DNA from: Chloroflexota bacterium
GTDB taxonomy: Bacteria; Chloroflexota; Dehalococcoidia; Dehalococcoidales; JACQON01
Length of the DNA stretch: 64,000 bases
Reading direction: 5' to 3'
Assembly (NCBI GenBank): GCA_016202545.1
Contig: JACQON010000012.1
Location: 62,001-126,000 of the forward strand
Under the pieces are notes generated by a model. That model was not told where the DNA came from. It did not search any database and worked only from the letters and a program-made list of their open reading frames with translations. The position numbers and the translations under genes are program-made. Of the stretch, positions 57,821 through 64,000 are shown piece after piece (positions within the stretch are counted from its first letter, which is position 1; each line of letters opens with the position of its first letter).

Positions 57821-57823
57821 CGG

Positions 57824-57908
57824 CGGAGGGGGTGGGATTCGAACCCACGGTCGCTTGCGCGACAACGGTTTTCAAGACCGTCACCATAGGCCGCTCGGTC
57901 ACCCCTCC
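57824..57908 (-). tRNA. tRNA-Ser (TGA anticodon)
   Basis: 85 bases on the minus strand. Acceptor GGAGGGG pairs with CCCCTCC, discriminator G. The D-arm contains GACCGAGCGGC. The anticodon stem ACGGT/ACCGT encloses CTTGAAA, giving anticodon TGA. A long variable arm (TGTCGCGCAAGCGACC) and T-arm GTGGG-TTCGAAT-CCCAC follow. The class II variable arm and G73 fit serine. CCA is not encoded (CCG follows). Confidence 0.95.
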
Positions 57909-57985: not shown

Positions 57986-58993
57986 CTAACTAAACTTTTC
58001 AACGGCCTTATTTTCAGGCTTATTATACTTTGTGGTAAAAGCCTCGTCAAAGCGTTTGGCTGCCGCCTCTTGAAGCCCAGGAGTAACGTGGCTGTAGGTA
58101 TCAAGGGTTATCTGTATACTTGAGTGCCCTAATCTCTCTTGTACTACTTTCGGGTGTATACCCTGTTTGGGCATAAGCGAGGCGTGGGTGTGTCTGGCAT
58201 CGTGAAGTCTGATAACTTTGACACCGGCACGGGCAGCCAGTATGGTCCAGGCGCGGGTAACCGTATTGGGGCGTATGGGCTTCCCGTCCAGGTGGCTAAA
58301 AACTAGGTCACCATCAGTTAGTGGTATCCCCAGCATAACCCGCTCCAGCTTCTGCTTTTCCCGGTGTTCTGTGAGTAGCAAGGTAGCTGAAGGGGGTAAT
58401 GCTACCGTTCGCCTTCCTTTAGCCGTCTTGGGTTGTCTGAAAACAATGCTGCCGTCCCTCAAATGATGCAGGCTGCGTGTTACCGAGACCTCGCCAAGTA
58501 TGATGCCCGCAACAAATCTATTTACCATTCGCTCTATAATGTCTTTCTCTTTGCTGCCTTTCTTGAGTTTCTGTGAGAGTTGCTTCTGCTCAATGATATT
58601 GTGCATTACATTACGTGTCTCTTGCTGAAGTTGCTTCAAGGCGGATTCACATTTATCCCATGCCTGTTCCCATTCATTCAAGGCATCCCACCGTACTTTA
58701 GCTATGGTATGAGTTTTAAGCGATGTAAGCAACAGTTTACGGGCATTTTGGGTAGCTCCCACATCGCGCATCCCATACGGCGAACAGTCTCGAAAGCTAT
58801 CAAGTCGCCACATTTTATCAAGAACATCCGCCGCGAGTGGCATGGAATTTGGTGAGTCGGGTACGTCCAATATCTGATTTAGCGTCCCCGCCAATGTGAT
58901 GAGGCAATGCAGGTGGTTACGGAATTCTTCCGCAGCTACATCTTTGCGAGCCGCCTTGAGTTCGTCTACGGATTTACTACGTTGCCATTCTTC
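57986..58993 (-). pseudogene. Decayed tyrosine recombinase/integrase remnant
   Basis: The C-terminal 130 residues are a phage-type integrase catalytic domain: beta-hairpin Lys in PKTAKGRR, HDARHTHAS (H-x2-R), LGHSS and the Tyr in TLDTYSHV. The segment that should carry the first catalytic Arg is missing: unrelated helical sequence runs directly into GEVSVTRSL. The frame is open upstream to a stop at 58994-58996 without a plausible start (TTG at 58894 is the only one), and the GTCATTGC repeat lies 26 bases beyond. It sits 78 bases from tRNA-Ser and marks an old integration. Confidence 0.75.
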
Positions 58994-60198: not shown

Positions 60199-61317
60199 AT
60201 GAAAAAGTCGCTAACACATCTACTGGTTGCACTCAGTATCTTATCGACTATGGTCGTTGTCTCTTGTGCCCCCAAGCCGACCCCGGCGCCTGCGCCAACA
60301 GTCACGGTGACGGCCCCAGCGCCGGCACCAGCGCCGCCAGTCACGGTTACAGCGCCGGCACCAGCGCCACCCAAGCCGGCAGAAAAAATCAAGATACAAT
60401 TGATAGGCGGTAGGCCGGGTGACCCGTGGACGGTGTTCCAGTATGCGTTGAGTTCTTTTATTAACGAAGAATCGGAGATGCTGAGGTCCTCCGTCCTGCT
60501 TACGGGAGGAGTAGGCGACTACTATCCCATCGCCGCCGAAAAGCCAGAGAATAAGGCACTCTCCGTAGGTACCGGTCTGCACACAGGGACGGTTACTCTC
60601 ACTGGAAAACCGTTGGGGCTTAAGACGAAGTTCCTCGCAATGCAGGCTATGCAACCCTATGTGTGGGTCACTTATAACAAAGACATAAAGACCCTTGCAG
60701 ACTTCGCCGGTCGCACCGTGGCCGGTCCCCGGGCCGTGCCTGGCTGGCAGGACCATTTCCGCATTCCGCTGGAGCTGGTTGGCGTCTGGGACAAGATAAA
60801 ATTTGCTGCCGCCGGCGAGAGTGCAGCAGCAAGCTCTCTTACCGATGGAACAGTAGAGATAGCATACGGCAGCCTGAACTACGTCTATCCAGATAAAATC
60901 TCGCTTAGTAGTTACCTGGAACAGGCTAAAGTAAAGGCTCCCCTGTACTTTGCAGACTGGGGCAAGGATACTATCGAGGTAGGGCTGTCAGGCAAGGTGG
61001 AGTGGAAACCCATCCTTTCCTTCGAAGTCCCACCCAAGGCCCTGGGAGCAACCCAGCCGGAAAGAATCTATGTCTGGCTGTTGCCTCTATTCTGGGCGGC
61101 TGACCTGGCGATGGATGAAAAGGTAGCCTACGAGATAACTAGGATAATATACACGCGGGCCAAAAAAGGGGACTTCGCCGGTTTTCATGCCCAGGGGGCA
61201 GGCATTGTTCCCGGAATGGTAGAATACGGGCCCTGGAAGACCAAGCAAGAGATTGAAGAGTGGTACCATCCGGGAGCGTTAAAGTTCTACCGGGAGATAG
61301 GAATCAAGGGCCTATAG
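60199..61317 (+). CDS. TAXI-family TRAP transporter substrate-binding lipoprotein
   Basis: 372 residues. Lipobox VVVSC near residue 23, then a Pro/Ala/Thr-rich linker with near-identical internal repeats (TVTVTAPAPAPA and PVTVTAPAPAPP), then the periplasmic-binding fold. TAXI hallmarks: GTGLHTGT near residue 131, FAGRTVAGPRAVPGWQ near residue 172, LTDGTVEIAYGS near residue 213 and a late AGIVPGMVEYG. It captures an organic anion for the permease encoded next. ATG with AGGAGAGG upstream. Confidence 0.9.
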   Translation: MKKSLTHLLVALSILSTMVVVSCAPKPTPAPAPTVTVTAPAPAPAPPVTVTAPAPAPPKPAEKIKIQLIGGRPGDPWTVFQYALSSFINEESEMLRSSVLLTGGVGDYYPIAAEKPENKALSVGTGLHTGTVTLTGKPLGLKTKFLAMQAMQPYVWVTYNKDIKTLADFAGRTVAGPRAVPGWQDHFRIPLELVGVWDKIKFAAAGESAAASSLTDGTVEIAYGSLNYVYPDKISLSSYLEQAKVKAPLYFADWGKDTIEVGLSGKVEWKPILSFEVPPKALGATQPERIYVWLLPLFWAADLAMDEKVAYEITRIIYTRAKKGDFAGFHAQGAGIVPGMVEYGPWKTKQEIEEWYHPGALKFYREIGIKGL

Positions 61318-61376
61318 CCTGACAAAAGCTCCCCCGCTTGCTCTCTGAAGCATAAACGGCAGGACTTGGCAAAGGG

Positions 61377-61482
61377 GTAACTGCTCCGGGCTGCTGCTCC
61401 GTGCGTTGAGCCTGACATGAATGGAGCGATAAACCAGGCATGGTATTCGGAAAGTGAACCATACCGGGCCTGGAGCAGTTAC
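61377..61482 (+). promoter_or_regulatory. Structured leader RNA between the TAXI and TRAP permease genes
   Basis: GTAACTGCTCCGGGC (61377-61391) pairs with GCCTGGAGCAGTTAC (61468-61482) over 15 bases with one G-U. Enclosed are GCTCC/GGAGC (61396-61400, 61423-61427) and GGTAT/ATACC (61442-61446, 61461-61465), making a three-way-junction layout. CCAGGC (61434-61439) can instead pair with GCCTGG (61468-61473), which excludes the long outer stem, so two states compete. The permease ATG follows 12 bases later. Confidence 0.55.
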
Positions 61483-61494
61483 TTTTAACGGGCG

Positions 61495-63441
61495 ATGAAA
61501 TTTCTCCGCTGGCTGAAAGGTAGCGAAGCATGGCTGACAATAGCGGTTGTCGCCATGCTGGCCTACCAGCTTTTCTATACCCGGTACTTCTTGTATGACC
61601 CAGGGATGCACCGGATTACCTTCCTCGGCTTCAGTTTTATCGTGGTCTTCCTAGCCGCGCTCGTCGCCATCCCGAAAATTAAAAGCGTCGCCTCAAAAAT
61701 TAAACGGCTTTTTCTGGTTCTGCTACTGCTGGTTGGCATAGGACTTACAGTCCAGCTTCTGGCCATATATCCCAAATCGCTGACCCAGCAATTTCTTCCC
61801 CTCCCTCAGGCTATGGTTGCCGGAACCATCGCTCTTATTTTCTGCTTTGCGCTGACGTGGTGGCGGATCGGGAAGGTCTTCGGCGTGGTCATCCTACTCG
61901 CTTTCGCCTATGTGATTTTGGGACCTTATATTCTCCCCGAAGATATTCAGCCCCCGAGAGTATCGCTTTTGCGTCTGCTTGCTTGGACGGCGGGTGACAT
62001 CGTTTCCGACCAAGGGGTATATGGCAGCATACTGAGCTTTCTGGCTAACTATATGTGGCTGCTTATGCTTCTAGGCAGCTTCTTGCAGGCCTTTGGCGGG
62101 CTGAGGTTTATTGAGAAGATAGGCATGTTGGCGAGCACCAGGCTGGCCAGCGGCCCGGCGGCGCTATCTGTGGTCACCAGTTCACTGGTGGGCATGGTAA
62201 CCGGCGTCACTGCGGCCAACATCGCCATTACAGGCTCATTCACCATCCCCATGATGAAACAGCGGGGTTACACCCGTGAGCAGGCGGCTGGCATTGAAGA
62301 AGCCGCTTCAAACGGCGGGCAAATTATGCCGCCGATAATGGGGGTGACCGCCTTTATACTGGCCGAGTTTATCGGCATACCATACATAAAGGTGACCTAC
62401 CATGCCTATATTCCCGCCTTTATTTACTTCTTTTGTGTCTTTTTATATGTCCAGCTTCAGGCCATGAAGCGGGGTTTTACCCCGCTGCCGCCGGTTAAGA
62501 TTAGCGGTAAAGAGCTACTCCTTGATGCACCTCTTTTTATCCTCCCGCTTCTGGTTCTGGTGCTGTTGATGATAAAAGGGAACACCCTAGTCTTCACCAG
62601 TTTTTGGGCGATAATAACTGTCATTGGTACTGGTCTTATATCCAGCCTCGCCAGAAAAAAAGCTAGAATAGACTGGAAGGAGGCCAGACAAAGGCTGGTT
62701 GGCGGTGCGGTAAGTGCCTGTGATATGGCAATCATAGCCGGACTGCTGGGTGCCCTAACCGGGATATTGGAAATGTCGGGGTTGGCCTTTATGATTGGGG
62801 AGTTTTTCCTGAAGCTGAGCGGCGGGAACCTGTTTTTGCTCTTGATGTTTACAGCTATAACCTGTCTTATCCTGGGCACTGGACTGCCGACAATAACAGC
62901 CTATGTTCTAACTGCCATGGTGCTGGCGCCGCCCCTAATCGCTCTCGGTGTCCCCGTTCTGGCAGCGCATATGTTTATATTTGTTTACGCTATCTCAGCC
63001 AATGTCACGCCGCCCATAGGCATAGGCATCATCGTCGCCCAGAGGATAGCCGGCGGCACTTTCTGGGGCACTGCCTGGGAAGGCGTAAAGGCTTGCTTTG
63101 TTACCTTCTTCTTGCCTTTCTTCTTTATTTATGCTCCAGCGGTGATGTTATTGTTCGAGGGACTTTCGGTGCCATCCATAATTATGCACTTGCTCATCGC
63201 TTTGCTGTTCACCATGTCTGTCTCTTTCGTACTTTCCGATTACTGCCTGGCCAAGCTCAGCCTGCCTGAGAAAATGCTCTTCGGCGTCGGCGGGCTATTG
63301 CCTTTACTGGCGCTGGCTTTCAAAGCACAGGGCTGGCTGCTGGTCACAATCGCCCTGGCAGCTTTTCTATTTGGCCTTATGTTGAGCCGCCAGCGTTCCA
63401 GGGTGCTAAGTCTGGCTGTAGGTTCGCCAGGTGATGGATAA
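61495..63441 (+). CDS. TRAP transporter fused permease (DctQ-DctM type, 4TM/12TM)
   Basis: 648-residue membrane protein, sodium-coupled importer for the TAXI-bound solute. About 16-18 helices: the short DctQ-like part (about 1-130) is fused to a DctM-like part, with motifs GMVTGVTAANIAITGSFTIPMMKQRGY near residues 240-265 (core ITGSFTIPMMK) and EEAASNGGQIMPPIMG near residue 270. GTGLPTITAYVLTAM lies near residue 462. ATG at 61495 has no strong ribosome site, which fits control by the leader structure. Confidence 0.9.
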   Translation: MKFLRWLKGSEAWLTIAVVAMLAYQLFYTRYFLYDPGMHRITFLGFSFIVVFLAALVAIPKIKSVASKIKRLFLVLLLLVGIGLTVQLLAIYPKSLTQQFLPLPQAMVAGTIALIFCFALTWWRIGKVFGVVILLAFAYVILGPYILPEDIQPPRVSLLRLLAWTAGDIVSDQGVYGSILSFLANYMWLLMLLGSFLQAFGGLRFIEKIGMLASTRLASGPAALSVVTSSLVGMVTGVTAANIAITGSFTIPMMKQRGYTREQAAGIEEAASNGGQIMPPIMGVTAFILAEFIGIPYIKVTYHAYIPAFIYFFCVFLYVQLQAMKRGFTPLPPVKISGKELLLDAPLFILPLLVLVLLMIKGNTLVFTSFWAIITVIGTGLISSLARKKARIDWKEARQRLVGGAVSACDMAIIAGLLGALTGILEMSGLAFMIGEFFLKLSGGNLFLLLMFTAITCLILGTGLPTITAYVLTAMVLAPPLIALGVPVLAAHMFIFVYAISANVTPPIGIGIIVAQRIAGGTFWGTAWEGVKACFVTFFLPFFFIYAPAVMLLFEGLSVPSIIMHLLIALLFTMSVSFVLSDYCLAKLSLPEKMLFGVGGLLPLLALAFKAQGWLLVTIALAAFLFGLMLSRQRSRVLSLAVGSPGDG

Positions 63442-63465
63442 AATTTCTGGTTGAAGGTTAACCAA

Positions 63466-64000
63466 TTGGCAAAAAGAATCGACGAAGAAATAGAAGTGAC
63501 ATTGCAGGCATTAAAGCGCAGAGGCCTAGACGCCAGGTTTGCCGAAAACAGGCGGGTTGCGAGGCAGATGGTGGCGGCAATGGTGCCGGAGCACTGGATA
63601 GTCGGCTGCGGCGATTCGGCCACCATTAGGTCGATTGGCGTTCTCCAGGACCTCATGGATATGGGGAATAGGGTACTAGACTACCATATTTGGCCCAAAA
63701 TTATGAGAGAAAAGCCGCAAAGGGTGCCCTTGCGGGTGATGAAGCAGACATCGCAGGGTTGCGACGTGTTCCTGTCCAGTTCAAACGCCGTCACGATGGA
63801 CGGGAAGCTGGTAAATATAGATGGCGCCGGTATAAGGGTGACCGGGATGGTTTTTGGCCCGCTACTTTCGATTGTTGTGGTGGGCAAGAACAAGATTGTC
63901 AGGGATGTTGACGCAGCGCTTCACCGCATAAAGAACGTCATCGCCCCGTTCCACCTAAAGACTATAGGCTGGGACTCTCCGTGCGTGGCTGCGGGTCAAT
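63466..64000 (+). CDS. LUD-domain (LutC/DUF162-like) protein, partial at right edge
   Basis: 178 residues visible. The domain shows VGCGDSATIRSIG near residue 47, TMDGKLVNIDGAGIRVTGMVFGP near residues 108-130 (core DGKLVNIDGAG), VVVGKNKIVRDVDAALHRIKN near residue 135, and a late Cys in DSPCVAAG. The family includes lactate-utilisation subunit LutC and related ligand-binding proteins. TTG start at 63466 with GAAGG upstream; an in-frame TTG at 63451 is possible. It lies 24 bases downstream of the permease and is probably co-transcribed, so it may act on the imported solute. Confidence 0.82.
   Translation, partial: MAKRIDEEIEVTLQALKRRGLDARFAENRRVARQMVAAMVPEHWIVGCGDSATIRSIGVLQDLMDMGNRVLDYHIWPKIMREKPQRVPLRVMKQTSQGCDVFLSSSNAVTMDGKLVNIDGAGIRVTGMVFGPLLSIVVVGKNKIVRDVDAALHRIKNVIAPFHLKTIGWDSPCVAAGQ

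What the first reader, a model, noticed from the sequence alone, without database searches (positions are those of the whole stretch)
61377..61482. Switch-like structured leader RNA before the TRAP permease
A 15-bp outer stem encloses two smaller hairpins, and CCAGGC at 61434-61439 can capture part of the closing strand to give a competing long hairpin. CTGCTCC occurs twice (61381-61387 and 61394-61400), so the strand GGAGCAG has two possible partners. The structure ends 12 bases before the permease start, which lacks a strong ribosome site. This arrangement suggests ligand- or protein-controlled expression of the permease relative to the TAXI protein, possibly a new riboswitch class.
Basis: partly seen in the sequence, partly recalled or inferred. 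Interest (0 to 1): 0.62.

Follow-up and report, generated by a model that had tools for sequence, protein, structure and literature searches.

The report
Hairpin between transporter genes, not riboswitch
A large RNA hairpin sits between the genes for a transporter's binding protein and its membrane channel; relatives carry a differently-sequenced hairpin at the same place, so it most likely helps the cell make more binding protein than channel rather than sensing a molecule.

Summary
The structure is real. A 15-bp stem (61377-61391/61468-61482, extendable to 20 contiguous pairs with G-U) encloses two hairpins, MFE -50 kcal/mol. It is the best perfect helix of span under 130 nt on the + strand of the window; 9 of 300 shuffled windows do as well. 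The "switch" is weak: the CCAGGC hairpin is 7 kcal/mol worse, and pairing GGAGCAG with the second CTGCTCC is 16 kcal/mol worse.

A riboswitch class is not supported. There is no Rfam match, no second copy in the genome, and no credible DNA or covariance-model match in 156 genomes of the order. Instead, a strong hairpin of unrelated sequence follows most TAXI genes: 73 of 100 have a helix of at least 9 bp, against 36 of 176 control genes. In the order, 27 of 39 TAXI 3' flanks fold with z below -2, against 3 of 67 controls. The hairpins sit about 30 nt after the TAXI stop and occur even where the next gene is not the permease, including two other TAXI genes of this genome.

Best reading: an intercistronic stem-loop of the malE-malF kind, raising binding protein over permease, mainly by protecting the upstream mRNA. 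This copy is unusually large and branched. The mechanism is inferred; expression was not testable.

The parts
60199..61317 (+). TAXI-type TRAP substrate-binding protein gene (372 aa, lipoprotein-like signal), good Shine-Dalgarno
   Evidence: NMT1_3 22.9 bits (cut-off 27) and TIGR02122 TRAP_TAXI 31.5 bits (cut-off 84), so a divergent TAXI; AAGGAGAGGA before ATG
61373..61486 (+). Branched intercistronic stem-loop: outer helix 61373-61392/61467-61486 (20 pairs with G-U, 15-bp core)
61395..61428 (+). Inner hairpin 1 (61395-61402 / 61421-61428)
   Evidence: pair probability 0.92-1.0 for 61396-61402
61434..61467 (+). Inner hairpin 2, interrupted; its first six bases (CCAGGC) could alternatively pair with 61468-61473, 7 kcal/mol worse
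61483..61486 (+). TTTT at the base of the outer stem; short, not a canonical terminator tail
   Evidence: no terminator-like site called here
61495..63441 (+). TRAP fused permease gene (648 aa), no Shine-Dalgarno in the 12 nt before ATG
   Evidence: TIGR02123 413.7 bits (cut-off 320.7), DctM PF06808

Best explanation
It is an intercistronic stem-loop at the 3' end of the TAXI binding-protein gene inside a TAXI-permease operon. The inferred mechanism: after the polycistronic mRNA is cut in, or degraded from, its permease part, the strong stem blocks 3'-to-5' exonucleases, so the TAXI message outlives the permease message. Together with the permease's poor ribosome site this gives the excess of binding protein over channel that such transporters need. 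Shown: the structure, its place, the recurrence of unrelated hairpins after TAXI genes, and the lack of a homologous element. Inferred: the operon transcript, mRNA protection, and the protein ratio.
For: TAXI-permease gaps fold far better than gaps before the same permease family with another gene upstream (median z -3.3 in 54 against -0.5 in 35, p 1e-7). Of 100 TAXI 3' flanks, 73 have a helix of at least 9 bp against 36 of 176 control genes (Fisher p 7e-18). In the order, 27 of 39 against 3 of 67 have z below -2 (p 4e-8). Hairpins lie a median 29-30 nt after the TAXI stop (quartiles 19-38), while the distance to the permease varies widely. 20 of 30 TAXI genes not called as followed by the permease still have the hairpin, including two in this genome (L117 AGAGAGGGGGC/GCCCCCTCTCT and L118, 18 bp). 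Only 8 of 73 have a T-rich tail, unlike terminators. PMC5927463 reports the same architecture in E. coli: protective hairpins without a U tract after the stabilised gene, and five ABC transport operons in which the stabilised gene is always the binding protein.
Against: This copy is atypical: branched, about 110 nt long (TAXI hairpin spans have a median of 34 and a 90th percentile of 49 in 110-nt flanks), 55-58 nt from the TAXI stop and close to the permease start. No RNA data exist. No close relative is held, so covariation of this very stem could not be tested. The RNase repertoire of this organism was not examined.
Confidence: 0.68

Rival explanations
1. Partial transcription attenuator: the stem with TTTT causes some polymerases to stop after TAXI, lowering permease mRNA (leaky termination rather than mRNA protection).
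For: TTTT at the base of the 3' arm; 8 of 73 TAXI hairpins elsewhere have at least 5 T in the next 8 bases; some Thermotogota gaps are terminator-like (L022: GAGGGGGC/GCCCCCTC then TTTTC).
Against: The stem here is very wide (74-nt interior), the U run is short and itself pairs, and the terminator scan did not call it; most related hairpins lack a T tail.
Confidence: 0.13
2. Ligand- or protein-controlled leader of the permease (riboswitch or translational switch).
For: Branched three-way shape, closeness to the permease start, lack of a Shine-Dalgarno, and an alternative hairpin that can form while the RNA is being made and is displaced once 61480 is transcribed (prefix folds).
Against: No Rfam match, single copy, no credible model match in 156 genomes, alternative folds 7-16 kcal/mol worse. 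The 73%-identical paralogous permease of this genome lacks the element.
Confidence: 0.07
3. A degenerate small mobile palindrome (MITE- or REP-like) that happened to insert in the gap.
For: Long terminal inverted repeat with a branched interior.
Against: No second copy in the genome, no target-site repeat visible at the ends, no plasmid match, and the position agrees with a general rule for TAXI genes.
Confidence: 0.07

Closest known systems
malE-malF intercistronic structure (E. coli malEFG; described in PMC5927463)
   Same: Strong stem between the binding-protein gene and the membrane-subunit gene; binding protein needed in excess.
   Different: From general knowledge malE-malF is a REP repeat present in many copies; this element is single-copy, branched and in a TRAP rather than an ABC operon. 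No expression data here.
Protective 3' hairpins of differentially decaying E. coli operons (PMC5927463)
   Same: Stable hairpin after the stabilised upstream gene, without a U tract; ABC binding-protein genes are prominent among them.
   Different: There shown by RNA half-lives and term-seq; here inferred from sequence of an incompletely assembled genome without expression data.
puf intercistronic stem-loop (Chen et al. 1988, cited in PMC5927463)
   Same: Intercistronic stem-loop acting as an mRNA decay terminator.
   Different: Photosynthesis operon; measured.
Riboswitches (Rfam)
   Same: Branched fold before a transporter gene.
   Different: No family match and no conserved core across relatives.

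Membership tests
Intercistronic stabilising stem-loop (malE-malF kind) | Strong stem between a binding-protein gene and the next transporter gene, same strand | tested here: met
Intercistronic stabilising stem-loop (malE-malF kind) | Recurs in relatives next to the binding-protein gene more often than next to other genes | tested here: met
Intercistronic stabilising stem-loop (malE-malF kind) | No strong U tract after the stem | tested here: inconclusive
   TTTT present but largely within or at the foot of the stem; no terminator called
Intercistronic stabilising stem-loop (malE-malF kind) | Upstream mRNA longer-lived than downstream mRNA | not testable with these tools
   needs RNA half-lives or term-seq
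Riboswitch | Match to a described family | tested here: not met
   Rfam 15, gathering and E-value modes
Riboswitch | Conserved aptamer sequence and structure in relatives or other copies | tested here: not met
   single copy, no credible model or DNA match in 156 genomes of the order; no other genus or family relative is held
Riboswitch | Two mutually exclusive folds of similar stability | tested here: not met
   alternatives 7.1 and 16 kcal/mol worse
Intrinsic terminator | Compact G+C-rich hairpin followed by at least 5 T in 8 | tested here: not met
   sequence
MITE or REP element | Several copies in the genome | tested here: not met

The most novel reading that the evidence does not exclude
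A lineage-specific branched RNA switch in which a transient CCAGGC hairpin and the long outer stem compete during transcription, controlling permease expression in response to the TRAP substrate or a protein.
Probability: 0.06. Interest if true: 0.6.

Novelty: new member of a known kind. Interest (0 to 1): 0.22.

Why it matters
It removes a candidate riboswitch and replaces it with a testable rule: TAXI binding-protein genes tend to end in a strong hairpin of no fixed sequence. That extends the binding-protein-stabilising hairpin known from ABC operons to TAXI-TRAP operons, in this order and in other phyla. The few paper searches run here found no description of it for TRAP operons, which does not prove there is none.

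Tried and rejected
Rfam at gathering and E-value thresholds gave nothing relevant (mir-3478 and snoRNA matches far below cut-off). DNA search of own genome, order and plasmids found only 20-25 nt chance matches or nothing. A covariance model made from the single sequence found only itself and a chance match of 18 bits; the minus-strand match in the window is the palindrome itself, and the L049 match is the outer stem only, on the strand opposite or palindromic to a TAXI hairpin. Covariation of this element could not be counted because no homologue is held: genus and family contain only this genome. A viral contig scan for the permease gave nothing. Paper searches for dctPQM or TAXI with stem-loop found no paper describing such an element. 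An alignment of six phylum-level post-TAXI hairpins shows conserved arms with variable loops but too few paired changes to argue from.

Full report
Observation. The core is 15 pairs with one G-U, and 20 contiguous pairs if terminal G-U pairs count. Two inner hairpins are predicted, and the whole 112 nt folds at -50.0 kcal/mol with outer-stem probabilities near 1. The 161-nt surround has z -2.8, 1 of 200 shuffles being as stable. As the best perfect helix of span under 130 in the 64-kb window, 9 of 300 shuffled windows reach its score. So it is unlikely, but not wildly so, on sequence alone; the full 177-nt gap has z -1.9. Its position is what makes it convincing.

The switch. CCAGGC can pair with GCCTGG and CTGCTCC does occur twice, but the forced alternatives are 7 and 16 kcal/mol worse than the MFE. 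The second CTGCTCC is occupied by its own hairpin. Prefix folds show the CCAGGC hairpin forming transiently and being replaced when 61480 is reached; that is expected of nested inverted repeats and is not evidence of regulation.

Genes. The upstream gene is a divergent TAXI protein (TIGR02122 and NMT1_3 below their cut-offs, E 8e-8 and 7.6e-5). The downstream gene is a fused TRAP permease (TIGR02123, above cut-off). Then follows a LUD-domain protein; upstream of TAXI is a nitroreductase. The permease lacks a Shine-Dalgarno, whereas TAXI and the nitroreductase have good ones.

Relatives. Genus and family contain only this genome in the set. The genome has four further permeases, at 73, 59, 43 and 34% identity. 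The two nearest have an oxidoreductase-like gene and a nitroreductase-like gene directly upstream instead of TAXI (read from the translations, not scanned against families), and no equivalent of the element before the permease. I collected permease loci from the order, the phylum and a broad genome set and read the upstream gaps. In TAXI-permease gaps strong hairpins are the rule; with other upstream genes they are not (median z -3.3 against -0.5). The window's gap has no sequence relative among them (nhmmer).

Which gene does the hairpin belong to? Hairpins lie a median 29-30 nt after the TAXI stop with a narrow spread, and at very variable distances from the permease; the start calls of some distant permeases are uncertain, but the stop codons are not. 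Of 30 TAXI genes not called as followed by the permease, 20 still have a helix of at least 9 bp. A few of these may be permease-followed genes missed by the simple gene calling (for example L100 and L114), and some alphaproteobacterial flanks are G+C-rich. The two in this genome are clear: L117 and L118 have 11-bp and 18-bp hairpins 34-36 nt after TAXI. Against 176 control genes of the same loci the excess is strong (73 of 100 against 36 of 176), and within the order 27 of 39 against 3 of 67 by z. In that 110-nt test the window's own flank scores z +0.6, because the 110-nt cut severs its long structure. Related sequences are not independent, so these p-values are optimistic; the size of the contrast is the point.

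Mechanism. PMC5927463 describes differential decay in E. coli operons: the maltose operon and four other ABC operons stabilise the binding-protein segment, and stabilised upstream genes usually end in a stable hairpin without a U tract. The TAXI hairpins match: same place, usually no T-rich tail (8 of 73). I therefore commit to mRNA protection of TAXI as the main effect, with partial termination as the main rival. The lack of a ribosome site at the permease works in the same direction. None of these steps was measured.

How this copy differs. It is larger, branched, and further from the TAXI stop than most. That leaves a small space for an additional, lineage-specific role, rated 0.06.

Noticed in passing
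57822-57908 (-) and 57986-58894 (-): tRNA-Ser (anticodon TGA) next to a tyrosine recombinase/phage integrase gene, suggesting an integrated element or its remnant at a tRNA gene.
   Followed up: no
60280-60390: The TAXI signal-peptide linker is a repetitive Pro-Ala/Val-Thr-Val tract (PAPAPTVTVTAPAPAPAPPVTVTAPAPAPP), which also produces strong inverted repeats on the minus strand.
   Followed up: no
L116 (G000:C28): Three TAXI-like genes in tandem before one permease; by the simple test, the two further from the permease lack a strong 3' hairpin (helix 8 bp).
   Followed up: partly
L004/L117 and L005/L118: In this genome the permease nearest to the window's is preceded by an oxidoreductase-like gene, and another by a nitroreductase-like gene, with a TAXI gene further upstream; the window too has a nitroreductase next to TAXI, so TAXI-TRAP and redox enzymes are repeatedly linked here.
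   Followed up: partly
63451-63999: A LUD-domain protein begins 9 bases after the permease, probably in the same operon.
   Followed up: no
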